Shown: positions 1,255 to 20,924 of the stretch, piece by piece
How positions within the stretch are numbered: the stretch's first letter is position 1
Layout of the letters: each line of letters opens with the position of its first letter
DNA from: Tabrizicola sp.
GTDB taxonomy: Bacteria; Pseudomonadota; Alphaproteobacteria; Rhodobacterales; Rhodobacteraceae
DNA length: 64,000 bases
Assembly (NCBI RefSeq): GCF_016793705.1
Contig: NZ_JAEULO010000041.1
Location: 175,109 to 239,108, forward strand
Direction of reading: 5' to 3'
Program-made: the position numbers and the translations under genes
Notes under the pieces: model-generated
Seen by the model: the letters and a program-made list of their open reading frames with translations, nothing else
Told to the model about the DNA's origin: nothing
The model's database searches: none

Positions 1255-1620
1255 GTGGACCTGCTTCTCAGAGAATACCTTCCCATCCTCATCCTTCTGG
1301 CCATTGCCATCGGCCTGGGCATCGTCCTGATCCTGGCCGCCGCGGTGCTGGCCGTCAGGAACCCGGACCCCGAAAAGGTGAGCGCCTACGAATGCGGGTT
1401 CAATGCCTTCGACGACGCGCGGATGAAGTTCGACGTGCGCTTCTACCTGGTGTCGATCCTGTTCATCATCTTCGACCTGGAAGTGGCGTTCCTGTTCCCC
1501 TGGGCCGTGGCCTTCGGCGAGATCAGCATGGCCGCCTTCTGGTCGATGATGCTGTTCCTGGCCGTCCTCACGGTCGGCTTTGCCTATGAATGGAAGAAGG
1601 GGGCCCTGGAATGGGAGTGA
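1255..1620 (+). CDS. nuoA: NADH-quinone oxidoreductase subunit A
   Basis: NuoA is a membrane subunit of proton-pumping complex I, next to the quinone entry region. The product has three hydrophobic segments and the family signature [12 protein letters not shown] followed by [15 protein letters not shown] chose the GTG at 1255 because AGGGAG at 1243-1248 sits six bases upstream and the resulting 121-residue protein starts [10 protein letters not shown], as NuoA proteins do. The frame is open back to another GTG at 1210, which would add an unusual N-terminus. The stop overlaps the nuoB start (ATGGGAGTGA). Confidence 0.93.
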
Positions 1621-2225
1621 GGGGCACCTCGACGCCGATCGACGGCACTTCGGGCGGGATCGAGACCATCGGGATGCCGGGCGGCCAGCCGGTCGGGTTG
1701 CAGACCGGGCTGAACACGGCGGGGGCCGACCATGAGGTCGCCGTCCAGGCTCTGAACCGGGAGCTTTCGGACAAGGGGTTCATCCTGACGTCCACGGAAG
1801 ACATCATCAACTGGGCGCGGATCGGGTCCTTGCACTGGATGACCTTCGGGCTGGCCTGCTGCGCGGTCGAGATGATGCATACCTCGATGCCGCGCTATGA
1901 CCTGGAACGCTTCGGGACGGCGCCGCGCGCTTCGCCCCGGCAGTCGGACCTGATGATCGTCGCGGGCACGCTGACCAACAAGATGGCCCCGGCCTTGCGC
2001 AAGGTCTACGACCAGATGCCCGAGCCGCGCTATGTGATCTCCATGGGCTCCTGCGCGAACGGCGGCGGCTACTACCACTACAGCTATTCCGTGGTGCGGG
2101 GCTGCGACCGGATCGTCCCGGTCGACATCTATGTCCCCGGCTGCCCGCCCACGGCCGAGGCGCTGCTCTACGGTATCCTGCAGTTGCAGCGGAAGATCCG
2201 CCGCACTGGCACTCTGGTGAGGTGA
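1611..2225 (+). CDS. nuoB: NADH-quinone oxidoreductase subunit B
   Basis: NuoB carries the terminal 4Fe-4S cluster N2, which reduces quinone. All four ligands are visible: the tandem C83-C84 ([10 protein letters not shown]), C148 (GSCANGGG) and C178 (VPGCPP). The ATG at 1611 lies inside the end of nuoA, so translation is coupled; an in-frame upstream start at 1590 would overlap nuoA further and is less likely. The 204-residue product has a Gly/Thr-rich N-terminal extension of about 40 residues before the conserved core, a common variable part of alphaproteobacterial NuoB. Confidence 0.95.
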
Positions 2226-2227
2226 TC

Positions 2228-2830
2228 ATGTCCGAGGCTTTGCAGGAACTGGCCGCAATCATCGAGTTGAAGCAGGCGGATGCGGTGCAATCGGCGACCG
2301 TCGCCTTTGGCGAGCTGACGCTGGTCGCGAACCTTGCCCATCTGGAATCGCTGGTGGAATATCTGCGCGATGATGCCTCGTGCCGGTTCTCGACCCTGGT
2401 CGACATCACCGCCGTCGACCACCCGGAACGCGCCCAGCGGTTCGACATGGTCTACCACTTGCTGTCGATGTACCGGAACCAGCGCATCCGCGTGAAGGTC
2501 GCGGTGCGCGAGGAGGAGATGGTGCCTTCGCTGGTCGCCATCCACCCCAGCGCCAACTGGTTCGAGCGCGAGGTGTTCGACATGTTCGGCATCCTCTTCT
2601 CGGGCCACCCGGACCTGCGGCGCATCCTGACCGACTACGGCTTCCGGGGCTATCCTCTGCGCAAGGACTTCCCGACCACGGGCTACACTGAGGTTCGCTA
2701 TGACGAGGCCTTGAAGCGTGTGGTCTATGAGCCGGTGAAGCTGGTGCAGGAATACCGGCAGTTCGATTTCATGAGCCCTTGGGAAGGGGCCGAATACATC
2801 CTTCCCGGTGACCAGAAGGGCGGTAAGTGA
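2228..2830 (+). CDS. nuoC: NADH-quinone oxidoreductase subunit C
   Basis: NuoC is a 30-kDa-type peripheral-arm subunit that packs against NuoD and helps form the quinone pocket. The signature [20 protein letters not shown] and the downstream [14 protein letters not shown] are intact. ATG 2228 follows GAGG (2219-2222) at good spacing; a GTG at 2222 in the same frame is the alternative. Length is 200 residues, normal for the unfused form (enterobacteria have a NuoCD fusion). The stop overlaps the next small gene (TGATG). Confidence 0.95.
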
Positions 2831-17931: not shown

Positions 17932-17943
17932 GGGGCGCGCACC

Positions 17944-19491
17944 ATGGAAAACCAGCTTCTCTCGATCATCACCTTCCTGCCGCTGGTTGCGGCGGCGATC
18001 CTGGCGCTCTTCATGCGCGGCGACGACGCGGCGGCGCGCAAAGGGGCGAAGTGGCTTGCGCTCTTCACCACTTCGGCGACCTTTGTCATCTCGCTTTTCG
18101 TGCTGTTCCGGTTCGACCCATCGGACACCGGATTCCAGTTCGTCGAAGAGCGGAGCTGGATTCTCGGCCTCAGCTACAAGATGGGCGTCGACGGCATCTC
18201 GATCCTGTTCGTGATGCTGACCACCTTCCTCATGCCCCTGACCATCTGGTCCTGCTGGGCGGTGGAGACGCGGGTCAAGGAATACATGATCGCCTTCCTG
18301 GTCCTGGAAAGCCTGATGCTGGGCGTGTTCTGTGCCCTCGACCTCGTGCTCTTCTACCTGTTCTTCGAGGCCGGGCTGATCCCGATGTTCCTGATCATCG
18401 GCATCTGGGGTGGCAAGGACCGCATCTATGCGGCCTTCAAGTTCTTCCTCTACACCTTCCTCGGCTCGGTCCTGATGCTGGTCGCGATGATCGCGATGTA
18501 CCTGGATGCAGGAACCACCGATATGGTCAAGCTCCTGGCGCATGACTTCGGGCATGAGACGTTCAGCCTTCTGGGCTTCCAGGTCGTCGGCGGCTTGCAG
18601 ACCATGCTGTTCCTGGCCTTCTTCGCGTCCTTCGCGGTGAAGATGCCGATGTGGCCGGTCCACACCTGGCTGCCCGACGCCCACGTCCAGGCGCCGACTG
18701 CGGGATCGGTGATCCTGGCGGCGGTGCTTCTGAAGATGGGCGGCTATGGCTTCCTGCGCTTCAGCCTGCCGATGTTCCCGGTCGGGTCCGAGGTGATGGG
18801 CCCGCTCGTGCTGTGGATGTCGGCCATCGCCATCGTCTACACCTCGCTTGTGGCCCTCGCGCAGACCGACATGAAGAAGCTGATCGCCTATTCCTCGGTC
18901 GCGCACATGGGCTACGTCACGATGGGCATCTTCGCGGCGAACCAGCAGGGGGTGGACGGCGCGATCTTCCAGATGCTGAGCCACGGCTTCATCTCGGGCG
19001 CGCTCTTCCTCTGCGTCGGCGTGATCTACGACCGGATGCACACGCGGGAAATCGACGCCTATGGCGGCCTCGTGAACCGGATGCCGGCCTATGCGCTGGT
19101 CTTCATGTTCTTCACCATGGCCAACGTCGGCCTGCCGGGCACCAGCGGGTTCGTCGGCGAATTCCTGACGCTGATGGGCATCTTCCAGGTCAACACCTGG
19201 GTCGCCGCAGTGGCGACCTCGGGCGTGATCCTGTCCGCCGCTTATGCGCTCTGGCTTTACCGCCGGGTCGTGTTCGGCGACCTGATCAAGGAAGCCTTGC
19301 GCTCGATCACCGACATGGACCGCCGCGAGAAGGCGATCTTCGCGCCGCTGATCGCGATGACCCTGATCCTGGGCATCTACCCCAGCCTCGTGACCGACAT
19401 CATCGGGCCCTCCGTCTCGGCCCTTGTCACCGACTACCATGCCGCCCAACCCGCGGACGGACTGGCCCTGAACGAAGGACATGACGAATGA
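17944..19491 (+). CDS. nuoM: NADH-quinone oxidoreductase subunit M
   Basis: NuoM is the second antiporter-like subunit: 515 residues and about 14 hydrophobic segments. The motif [20 protein letters not shown] with [19 protein letters not shown] is intact, as is [16 protein letters not shown]. It starts 12 bases after nuoL with ATG 17944, and the stop overlaps the nuoN start (ATGA). Nothing unusual. Confidence 0.96.
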
Positions 19492-20924
19492 CCTCCGCCG
19501 ATTTCCAGACCCTCCTCCCCGAGATCGTGCTGGCGGTCTATGCCATGCTGGCGCTGATCGCGGCGGTCTATTCCGGCAAGGACAAGCTTGCCGCGATGCT
19601 CGTCTGGGCGACGGCGGGGCTGTTCGTGGCGCTGGCGCTCTACATCGGTGCAAGCGGCGAAGGTGAGCGGACCGTCTTCTCGGGCCTCTTCACCGACGAT
19701 CCCTTCGCGCGCTTCGCCAAGGTGACGATCCTTCTGTCGGCGGCGGCAGTCCTGGTGATGAGCCAGGACTACATGACGCGGCGTGAGCTTCTGCGCTTCG
19801 AATACCCGATCCTGATCACGCTGGCCGTGGTGGGGATGATGGTCATGGTCTCGGCCGCCGACCTGATCACGCTTTACATGGGGCTGGAGCTGCAATCGCT
19901 GTCGCTCTACGTGGTCGCGGCGATGCGGCGCGACAGTGCCCGATCCTCGGAAGCGGGGCTGAAATACTTCGTCCTCGGCGCCTTGTCCTCTGGCCTCCTG
20001 CTCTACGGCGCCTCGCTGACCTACGGCTATGCCGGGACGACCCAGTTCGCAGGCATCCTGACCACGCTCGGCGATAGCGTGCCGCTGGGGCTTCTGTTCG
20101 GTTTGGTGTTCATGCTGGCCGGTCTTGCCTTCAAGGTCTCTGCCGCGCCCTTCCATATGTGGACACCGGACGTCTACGAAGGCTCGCCCACCCCGGTCAC
20201 CGCCTTCTTCGCCACGGCCCCCAAGGTTGCCGCGATGGGCCTGATCGCCCGCCTGGTGCAGGACGCCTTCGGCGGCATTCCGGGGCAATGGGGGCAGGTG
20301 CTGGCGGGCCTCGCGGTCGCCTCGATGTTCCTCGGTGCCGTGGCGGCGATCGGCCAGCGCGACATCAAGCGGCTGATGGCCTATTCCTCCATCGCCCATA
20401 TGGGCTATGCGCTGATCGGGCTTTGCGTCGGCACGGCCTATGGCGTGCAGGCGACGCTGATCTACATGGCGATCTATGTGACGATGAACATCGGCACCTT
20501 CGCCTTCATCCTGTCGATGGAGCGTGACGGGCGCCCGGTGTCAGACATCGCTGGCCTGAACCAGTTCGCGAAGAAGGAACCGTGGAAGGCGCTGGCGATG
20601 CTGGTGCTCCTCTTCTCGCTGGCCGGTGTGCCGCCGATGGTCGGCTTCTTCGGCAAGTTCTACGTGCTCAAGGCCGCCGTCGATGCGGGCTGGGTCTGGC
20701 TGGCCGTCGCGGGCGCGGTGGCCTCGGTCATCGGCGCCTTTTACTACCTGCGCATCGTCTACTTCATGTATTTCGGTGCCGAGCAGGAACCCGTCGACAG
20801 CCGCATGGCCCCGGTGCAATGGGCCATGCTCGCCGTGGTTTCCCTGGCCATGGTGCTGGGGGTGGTGAACCTGTTCGGGATCGAACCCGCGGCTGCCGTC
20901 GCCGCCGAAGCGCTTGTCCGGTAA
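19488..20924 (+). CDS. nuoN: NADH-quinone oxidoreductase subunit N
   Basis: NuoN is the third antiporter-like subunit: 478 residues with about 14 membrane helices. Signatures include [20 protein letters not shown] and [18 protein letters not shown]. It is the last canonical gene of the operon. The next gene (birA) starts inside its last codons, so the transcript probably continues. Confidence 0.96.

What the first reader, a model, noticed from the sequence alone, without database searches (positions are those of the whole stretch)
1255..20924. Complex I operon with about twelve accessory genes
Between nuoA and nuoN I count twelve extra frames: 2830-3165, 4397-4495, 5717-6607, 6613-6840, 8146-8391, 8526-8933, 8930-9433, 9438-9689, 11709-12116, 13691-13918, 13915-14328 and 15329-15502. 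Most overlap their neighbours' start or stop codons, so they are translated with the complex. Several are membrane or exported proteins. Mitochondrial complex I has many supernumerary subunits; bacterial versions are usually thought minimal. A lineage-specific set of accessory or assembly factors is the most attractive reading of this window.
Basis: partly seen in the sequence, partly recalled or inferred. Interest (0 to 1): 0.7.

Follow-up and report, generated by a model that had tools for sequence, protein, structure and literature searches.

The report
Complex I operon collecting extra genes
In one bacterial family the gene cluster for respiratory complex I has picked up small extra genes at fixed places, and one of them belongs to a protein family known from inside a photosynthetic complex rather than from complex I.

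Summary
All twelve frames are present and tightly packed between the 14 nuo genes. Eight (x3-x7, x9, x11, x12) are supported as genes by conservation; x2 has one relative; x1, x8, x10 have none. Over 100 fetched Rhodobacteraceae loci, one per genus, the main families keep one slot each; in 38 loci of other Alphaproteobacteria the slots are mostly closed. So a lineage-specific set is right. Complex I subunits are not supported: Paracoccus denitrificans encodes x3, x4, x6, x9 and two x11 there, but its 2.3 A complex I holds none (PMC11522691); the window's NDUFS4, NDUFS6 and NDUFA12 genes lie elsewhere. x3 is a relative of protein-O, a subunit of the Dinoroseobacter shibae RC-LH1 photocomplex, also encoded between nuoE and nuoF, yet occurs in 47 of 66 non-phototrophic genera. 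Best reading: an expression platform for membrane-bioenergetics helpers, mostly not complex I subunits. Such unidentified frames have long been known (recalled).

The parts
1255..20924 (+). nuo operon: nuoA 1255-1620, B 1590-2225, C 2222-2830, D 3162-4400, E 4495-5670, F 6851-8146, G 9686-11707, H 12146-13183, I 13183-13680, J 14325-14933, K 15019-15324, L 15502-17931, M 17944-19491, N 19488-20924
   Evidence: Pfam run for A, B, E and L only, the others named by relatives in PDB or by eye
2830..3165 (+). x1: 111 aa membrane-like frame (by eye) between nuoC and nuoD; orphan
   Evidence: overlaps both neighbours; no Pfam/NCBIfam match; no relative in 18 near loci or 100 genera; GC3 0.63 (81)
4397..4495 (+). 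x2: 32 aa hydrophobic frame between nuoD and nuoE; weak
   Evidence: overlaps both neighbours; one relative, L007, dN/dS 0.33 over 31 codons
5413..5628 (+). helix-hairpin-helix tail of NuoE, same module as the tail of x3
   Evidence: BLASTP 42% over 207 aa incl. linker; genome search, 63% to the x3 tail; NCBIfam models of L21, S2, PhaH match the tail
5717..6607 (+). x3: protein-O family; N-terminal membrane region, Lys/Ala/Pro linker, helix-hairpin-helix tail (tail 6344-6565)
   Evidence: PDB 9wqv_a E 3.1e-28, 8yy9_O E 2.2e-25; 73 of 97 genera, always nuoE-nuoF slot; dN/dS 0.275 (48)
6613..6840 (+). x4: DUF5337, 75 aa, two hydrophobic segments
   Evidence: Pfam E 6.2e-33 (7); 91 of 97 genera, always nuoE-nuoF slot; 5 changes on the tree; hydropathy
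8146..8391 (+). x5: small lipoprotein-like protein (lipobox read by eye)
   Evidence: 18 of 18 near loci, dN/dS 0.262 (48); 31 of 97 genera
8526..8933 (+). x6: DUF5333, probably exported (signal peptide by eye), predicted all-helical
   Evidence: Pfam E 9.6e-32 (7); 71 of 97 genera; dN/dS 0.278 (48); model pLDDT 87.1 (82)
8930..9433 (+). x7: DUF3291
   Evidence: Pfam E 4.9e-51 (7); 39 of 97 genera; dN/dS 0.152 (48)
9438..9689 (+). x8: 83 aa coiled-coil-like frame; orphan
   Evidence: only matches below cut-off, several of them coiled-coil families; no relative
11709..12116 (+). x9: lipoprotein-like protein of unknown fold
   Evidence: 73 of 100 genera, always nuoG-nuoH slot; Cys21 invariant in 17 of 17; dN/dS 0.279; model pLDDT 77.1 (83)
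13691..13918 (+). x10: 75 aa membrane-like frame (by eye); orphan
   Evidence: no relative; GC3 0.64 (81)
13915..14328 (+). x11: carboxymuconolactone-decarboxylase-family protein without cysteine
   Evidence: Pfam CMD E 1.3e-15 (8); 75 of 100 genera, always nuoI-nuoJ slot; dN/dS 0.127, like nuoJ 0.129 (48)
15329..15502 (+). x12: 57 aa zinc-ribbon-like protein (cysteine pattern read by eye), found mostly in near relatives
   Evidence: 5 of 18 near loci, dN/dS 0.319; 2 of 100 genera

Best explanation
The Rhodobacteraceae nuo operon works as a co-expression platform onto which the family has loaded accessory genes for membrane bioenergetics, each in its own slot. As I read the tree, a helix-hairpin-helix tail was first added to NuoE; then x3 appeared next to it, built from a membrane anchor plus the same tail; then x4 (DUF5337), x6 (DUF5333), x9 and x11, with later losses and many genus-specific additions. 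The products are made at the same time and place as complex I because they are translated from the same message, but most act beside the complex, not as stable subunits: as membrane-inserted or periplasmic helpers for assembly and placing of energy-converting complexes. x3 shows the mechanism most clearly: its membrane hairpin slips into a gap of a large membrane complex (seen for RC-LH1 in D. shibae), while its conserved tail hangs free on a long linker to bind something else. Shown by others: the place of the hairpin in RC-LH1. Shown here: slots, spread, selection, shared tail, absence of the homologues from the solved P. denitrificans complex I. Inferred: order of gain, co-translation, helper function, partner of the tail.
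For: Slot lengths: nuoE-F, F-G, G-H and I-J medians 1030, 1254, 407 and 402 nt in 98-101 family loci against -1, 6, -5 and 43 in 37-38 loci of other alphaproteobacterial families. 807 of 814 called extra genes in 103 family loci run with nuo. 24 families occur in 3 or more loci, 23 of them in one slot only, the 24th with one exception. On the tree x4 needs only 5 changes and x11 7. Purifying selection, x11 and x7 about as strong as nuoJ and nuoG. P. denitrificans has x3, x4, x6, x9 and two x11 but its complex I structure has none (PMC11522691). x3 family member solved in RC-LH1. x3 in 26 of 31 phototrophic and 47 of 66 non-phototrophic genera, p 0.21. Mean pairwise identity of the first 75 residues 0.24/0.20, of the tail 0.64/0.58, in 25 phototrophic/37 other full-length members.
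Against: No expression, protein or mutant data were seen for these genes in a non-phototroph. Weakly held subunits could be lost in purification, so the Paracoccus structure does not exclude them. The widespread x4 and strongly constrained x11 fit a dedicated complex I role equally well. Of 100 family loci that could be scored, two have none of the five main families and four have one (by profile hits alone three and three of 98), so complex I seems to run without them, but that also fits mere passengers.
Confidence: 0.5

Rival explanations
1. One reading: dedicated complex I accessory subunits or assembly factors. The proteins bind complex I or its intermediates, transiently or weakly, and speed assembly or stabilise it; each slot places the factor next to the subunit it serves (x3/x4 next to the NADH-oxidising module, x11 between nuoI and nuoJ).
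For: Slot fidelity and widespread x4; x11 and x7 about as constrained as core subunits. In draws from the whole class, DUF5337 passes its cut-off in 5 of 385 genomes and DUF5333 in 3 of 192, each of them in this family and with one match per genome; two other genomes match DUF5337 below the cut-off, and how many family genomes lacked a match is not shown.
Against: Not in the 2.3 A P. denitrificans complex; in the passages read, a PIMT was singled out there but no product of the operon's extra genes was named (supplement not readable). Family loci with none or one of the five (L107, L109, L044, L111, L117 with all 14 nuo genes in view; L119, whose stretch starts after nuoC). The x3 family sits in RC-LH1.
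Confidence: 0.27
2. Passengers in a permissive, highly expressed operon: small genes settle between nuo genes because co-translation gives them steady expression; no common function with complex I.
For: Some inserts in other genera look unrelated to respiration: a sulfotransferase-like gene in the nuoC-nuoD slot of 18 loci and nuoB-nuoC of one, methyltransferase-like and other genes (labels read by eye). 151 of 814 called genes are singletons or pairs. x1, x8, x10 have no relative in the loci fetched.
Against: Five families kept in one slot in 71-91 of 97 or 73-75 of 100 genera, x4 and x11 with few changes on the tree (5 and 7), and dN/dS 0.13-0.28. x3, x6 and x9 changed more often (20, 15, 11).
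Confidence: 0.2
3. Photosynthesis-linked genes parked in the nuo operon: x3 and perhaps x7 serve the photosynthetic apparatus and are relics in non-phototrophs.
For: Protein-O in RC-LH1; x7 in 21 of 31 phototrophic against 20 of 66 other genera, raw p 0.0008.
Against: x3 shows no such link (p 0.21; independent pairs median p 0.45) and the x7 link fades with relatedness taken in (median p 0.29, range 0.02-1). The window's genome has no match to the reaction-centre family yet keeps x3 under selection. The membrane part, which touches RC-LH1, is the least conserved part, in phototrophs too.
Confidence: 0.03

Closest known systems
Unidentified reading frames (URFs) of the P. denitrificans nqo and Rhodobacter capsulatus nuo operons (Xu, Yagi and co-workers 1993; Dupuis and co-workers 1998; recalled, not held in the library)
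   Same: Extra small frames between the same nuo genes; P. denitrificans homologues were read here in L125
   Different: This genome has more (twelve counted), among them x12, found mostly in near relatives, and orphans x1, x8, x10; a slot map over 100 genera and a reading of the order of gain are worked out here
Protein-O of the Dinoroseobacter shibae RC-LH1 complex (PMC12079452; PDB 8yy9, 8yz2, 9jpb, 9km0); second case 9wqv chain a
   Same: Membrane region, long linker, helix-hairpin-helix tail; gene between nuoE and nuoF (shown for D. shibae; not known for 9wqv)
   Different: The window's genome has no match to the reaction-centre family; first 75 residues only 23% identical to protein-O, tail 47%
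Alphaproteobacterial supernumerary subunits NDUFS4, NDUFS6, NDUFA12 and CI-PIMT
   Same: Extra proteins of complex I in the same family of bacteria
   Different: No family match links them to the window's twelve; encoded on other contigs of this genome (NDUFS4 C48, NDUFA12 C46, zf-CHCC/NDUFS6 type C48 and C59); CI-PIMT was not searched
Tails of ribosomal proteins L21 and S2 and phasin PhaH (NCBIfam NF008915, NF008966, NF045508)
   Same: Same linker plus helix-hairpin-helix module as NuoE and x3, below the models' whole-protein cut-offs; D. shibae L21 has it
   Different: Different carriers; in the window's genome only NuoE and x3 were found to carry the module

Membership tests
Complex I supernumerary subunit | Present in the purified or solved complex | tested here: not met
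   Tested by proxy: no PDB chain of complex I matches x3, x4, x6, x9 or x11 although the P. denitrificans homologues would have been found at E 2e-10 or better; complex composition from PMC11522691. Not tested for the window's own complex; x5, x7, x12 and the orphans not tested.
Complex I supernumerary subunit | Homologous to a known supernumerary subunit | tested here: not met
   No such match in Pfam for the twelve or in NCBIfam for the nine scanned there, x2, x8 and x12 left out
Complex I assembly factor | Loss lowers complex I amount or assembly | not testable with these tools
   No mutant data seen
Protein-O family (x3) | Homologous helix-hairpin-helix tail and linker | tested here: met
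   phmmer E 2.2e-25 (8yy9_O) and 3.1e-28 (9wqv_a)
Protein-O family (x3) | N-terminal membrane hairpin of two helices | tested here: inconclusive
   A crude hydropathy scan counts two segments in 46 of 64 full-length members, three in 8, one or none in 10; the window's x3 counts three adjoining ones; hairpin sequences too divergent to align with confidence
Protein-O family (x3) | Gene between nuoE and nuoF | tested here: met
   83 of 83 profile hits in 74 loci; D. shibae L048
Protein-O family (x3) | Subunit of RC-LH1 | tested here: not met
   No match to the reaction-centre family PF00124 in the window's genome, 94.5% complete
DUF5337 (x4), DUF5333 (x6), DUF3291 (x7) | Pfam score above the curated cut-off | tested here: met
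   112.9, 109.9 and 172.5 bits against 27, 27 and 23.5
Carboxymuconolactone decarboxylase family (x11) | Pfam score above the curated cut-off | tested here: met
   57.6 against 23 bits
4-carboxymuconolactone decarboxylase enzyme PcaC (x11) | NCBIfam equivalog cut-off | tested here: not met
   52.3 against 155.7 bits

The most novel reading that the evidence does not exclude
x3 (protein-O family) and NuoE form a matched pair: the same helix-hairpin-helix tail on a long flexible linker hangs from complex I and from a free membrane anchor that can lodge in other complexes. Through a shared partner of the tails (each other, or nucleic acid, as the same tail on ribosomal L21 and S2 might suggest) the pair tethers complex I to neighbouring energy-converting complexes, RC-LH1 in phototrophs, something else in non-phototrophs. 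The photosystem subunit protein-O would then be a general respiratory tether recruited to photosynthesis, not the reverse.
Probability: 0.12. Interest if true: 0.82.

Novelty: new member of a known kind. Interest (0 to 1): 0.5.

Why it matters
It turns a loose note about extra frames into a slot-by-slot history: a large operon that, in one family and mostly not in its relatives, has taken up helper genes and kept them. It also bears on a question left open in the protein-O paper, whether that photosystem subunit was native or acquired: the family is a common gene of the nuo operon, present in 47 of 66 non-phototrophic genera sampled. And it gives a short list (x4, x11, x6, x9, x3) of conserved unknown proteins next to a close bacterial model of mitochondrial complex I, where mutants can be made.

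Tried and rejected
ORF length as evidence: rejected, shuffled slot DNA gives frames as long too often. A first homology run over all frames timed out; it was rerun on frames outside the core genes. Clustering raw six-frame ORFs gave out-of-frame shadows, so genes were called by codon usage first. Link of x7 with phototrophy: raw p 0.0008 among 11 families tested, not kept after phylogenetic pairing. Link between a NuoE tail and an x3 tail over 97 loci: 49 both, 32 NuoE only, 7 x3 only, 9 neither, p 0.27, so no pairing shown, which speaks against the novel case. Folds: x6 and x9 models have no Foldseek match at E 0.001 or better. Disulfide of protein-O as a photosystem mark: a Cys pair at like spacing is in 10 of 25 phototrophic and 20 of 37 other members, rejected.

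Results against a neat slot history: x5's profile also hits one locus outside the family, L162, which the tree count leaves out. Some loci outside the family have long gaps too: L157 in six slots, L127, L137, L154, L162 and others in one or more; 18 extra genes were called there. L119, near the base, is listed with x9 through BLAST/HMM clustering of called genes only, not by the x9 profile, and x3 in L111 is weak (E 2e-8). The order of gain is read from a FastTree with 32 open forks of 137, and parsimony cannot tell gain from loss. L110 and L113, the deepest family branches, could not be scored for the nuoE-F and F-G slots.

Rows dropped: of the 149 family genomes other than the window's own, 100 were fetched; 49 were not, some because the match lay near a contig end, others only for number, and six divergent ones were taken in preference. 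34 of the 100 fetched loci lack one or more core genes within the 20 kb taken, so denominators are per slot. 19 of 83 x3 cluster members were left out as short or without tail motif, and two of the remaining 64 (P. denitrificans, L164) had no phototrophy label. Tail counts rest on a sequence pattern, not a profile; a stricter pattern gave fewer.

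
Full report
What is there. Between nuoA and nuoN lie the 14 complex I genes and the twelve extra frames, here x1 to x12 in order. Nine of the twelve overlap a neighbour by one or four bases. nuoE is taken to begin at 4495, so that x2 is bounded by overlaps on both sides.

Which are genes. Shuffled DNA of the slots often gives frames this long, so conservation decides. In 18 named loci, fetched by x6, x3, x4, x5, x7, x9 and x11 have 11-18 alignable relatives, x6 18 by construction, x12 five; median dN/dS is 0.127 (x11), 0.152 (x7), 0.25-0.28 (x3, x4, x5, x6, x9) and 0.32 (x12), against 0.06-0.15 for nuoD, F, G, I, J. 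x2 has one relative (L007). x1, x8 and x10 have none in these or in 100 genera, and x1, x2 and x10 have low third-position GC. Eight are thus well supported, one weakly, three not. Pfam names x4 DUF5337, x6 DUF5333, x7 DUF3291 and x11 carboxymuconolactone decarboxylase family; the other eight have no Pfam family above cut-off. NCBIfam, run for nine of the twelve, gives none above cut-off. No paper in the held library contains DUF5333 or DUF5337.

Distribution. NuoG was found in 150 of 150 family genomes of 150 genera, the window's included; 100 nuo loci of other genera were fetched. With denominators of loci that cover the slot: x4 91 of 97, x3 73 of 97, x6 71 of 97, x9 73 of 100, x11 75 of 100, x7 39 of 97, x5 31 of 97, x12 2 of 100. 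The profile hits of each family lie in one slot and on the nuo strand; for one x6 and one x7 hit nuoF was not in the fetched stretch. In 38 loci of other alphaproteobacterial families the median slots are closed, with exceptions such as L157 and L127, and none of these profiles hits there except x5 in L162. In draws from the whole class, DUF5337 passes its cut-off in 5 of 385 and DUF5333 in 3 of 192 genomes, all of this family; two further genomes match DUF5337 below the cut-off. A codon-usage gene caller found 814 extra genes in 103 family loci, 7 of them on the other strand, and 18 in 38 other loci. The 814 include 24 families in three or more loci, each bound to one slot, with one sulfotransferase-like gene as the only exception, plus 151 singles or pairs. 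In the family loci the slots nuoA-B, L-M and M-N exceed 100 nt in at most one locus, nuoB-C in 4 and nuoK-L in 7.

History. On a tree of NuoF-J and L-N from 140 loci, the deepest family branches that could be scored (L111, L119, L109) have none or one of x3, x4, x6, x9, x11; then come lineages with x3 and x4 (L099, L115, L116, L095), with x6 (L098), with x9 (L084, L104, L087), and the crown with x11. 50 of 100 family loci have all five, 25 four, 12 three, 7 two, 4 one, 2 none (by profile hits alone 46, 23, 15, 8, 3, 3 of 98). Changes on the tree: x4 5, x11 7, x9 11, x6 15, x3 20, x7 26, x5 24. The tree is a FastTree with many weak forks, and such counts do not separate gain from loss; the order is a reading, helped by closed slots in most outgroups.

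Not complex I subunits, as far as seen. One genome, G175, has a NuoF identical to that of the solved P. denitrificans complex I (8qby). Its operon (L125) holds x3, x4, x6, x9, two x11, an x5-like frame and a 60-residue frame. The 2.3 A structure has 14 core subunits, NDUFS4, NDUFS6, NDUFA12 and a PIMT (PMC11522691, abstract and passages). Searches of PDB chains with x4, x6 and x9 found nothing relevant, with x11 only decarboxylase-family entries, with x3 only photosynthetic entries besides weak chance matches; the P. denitrificans homologues would have been found at E 2e-10 to 2e-53. The mass-spectrometry paper says most further proteins were likely contaminants and singles out the PIMT (PMC8115037, passages); its supplement could not be opened. 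The window's genome encodes NDUFS4, NDUFA12 and NDUFS6-type proteins on other contigs.

x3 is a protein-O family member. Its best PDB matches are 8yy9 chain O and 9wqv chain a. Both entries hold a reaction-centre L chain and neither is among the 60 of 65 NuoF matches shown; no paper on 9wqv was found. The D. shibae paper (PMC12079452, section 2.3 read in full; abstract and outline) describes protein-O: 239 residues, a two-helix membrane hairpin lodged between RC and LH1 at the place of protein-U of Rhodobacter sphaeroides, an unseen remainder with a C-terminal domain like that of NuoE, gene between nuoE and nuoF, function unknown, origin unclear. L048 is that locus. The new point here: x3 occurs in 26 of 31 phototrophic and 47 of 66 non-phototrophic genera (Fisher p 0.21; independent pairs median p 0.45). 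The window's genome has no match to the reaction-centre family. In 25 phototrophic and 37 other full-length members the first 75 residues are poorly conserved (mean identity 0.24 and 0.20) and the tail well (0.64 and 0.58). So the family's conserved work seems to lie in the tail and not to be photosynthetic. The genome G046, with a reaction-centre L stretch identical over 244 residues to 1yst_L (R. sphaeroides, recalled), has no x3 in its nuo operon (L024) and no match to the tail module, in line with its use of protein-U.

The tail. x3 and NuoE share it. A NuoE tail pattern is seen in 81 of 97 family loci and 3 of 38 others; one of the three, L126, is the sister of the family in the tree, the other two (L127, L150) stand elsewhere. 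So the NuoE tail is probably older than x3. NCBIfam models of ribosomal L21 and S2 and phasin PhaH match the same module below their cut-offs, and D. shibae L21 has it. In the window's genome only NuoE and x3 were found to have it, in P. denitrificans only x3. What it binds is unknown; helix-hairpin-helix domains often bind nucleic acid (general knowledge).

Other products. x6 is predicted all-helical (pLDDT 87.1), x9 alpha/beta behind a lipoprotein-like start (pLDDT 77.1, Cys21 invariant in 17 sequences); neither has a PDB fold match at E 0.001 or better. x11 has no cysteine and falls below the PcaC cut-off.

Judgement. The most likely reading is a co-expression platform for bioenergetic helper proteins. 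Extra frames in such operons have been known since the 1990s (recalled; not found by searches of the held library; PMC9696053 and PMC4859585, passages, do not treat them), so the system is a new member of a known kind. The slot map, the order of gain and the spread of the protein-O family over non-phototrophs were not seen in print in searches (listings; the papers opened are named above, and PMC12654162, passages, adds nothing on protein-O).

Noticed in passing
L048, L023 and other family loci, nuoC-nuoD slot: A sulfotransferase-like gene (label read by eye) sits in the nuoC-nuoD slot of 18 loci and in nuoB-nuoC of one.
   Followed up: partly
L187:916-1710: Ribosomal protein L21 (named by eye) of the D. 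shibae genome carries the same linker and helix-hairpin-helix tail as NuoE and x3.
   Followed up: partly
L125:13175-13968: P. denitrificans has two tandem x11-type genes between nuoI and nuoJ.
   Followed up: no
L066, L073, L077, L080, L082, L090, L091, L093, L102, nuoE-nuoF slot: Nine loci have two called pieces of the x3 family; whether these are duplicates or one split call was not checked.
   Followed up: no
L031, L110, L113: No nuoA-nuoF was found in the 8.6 kb upstream of nuoG in these three loci, while nuoG-nuoN are intact: a split operon or a long insertion.
   Followed up: no
window 15502-17931: NuoL has a long stretch rich in His, then in Ala/Thr/Glu with a short repeat (translation).
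   Followed up: no
window 20914-24179: Directly downstream of nuoN, on the same strand, follow frames that look like biotin ligase, type III pantothenate kinase and ribonuclease J (labels by eye).
   Followed up: no
family loci, nuoF-nuoG slot: x7 (DUF3291) is commoner in phototrophic genera, 21 of 31 against 20 of 66, but not clearly so after allowing for relatedness.
   Followed up: yes
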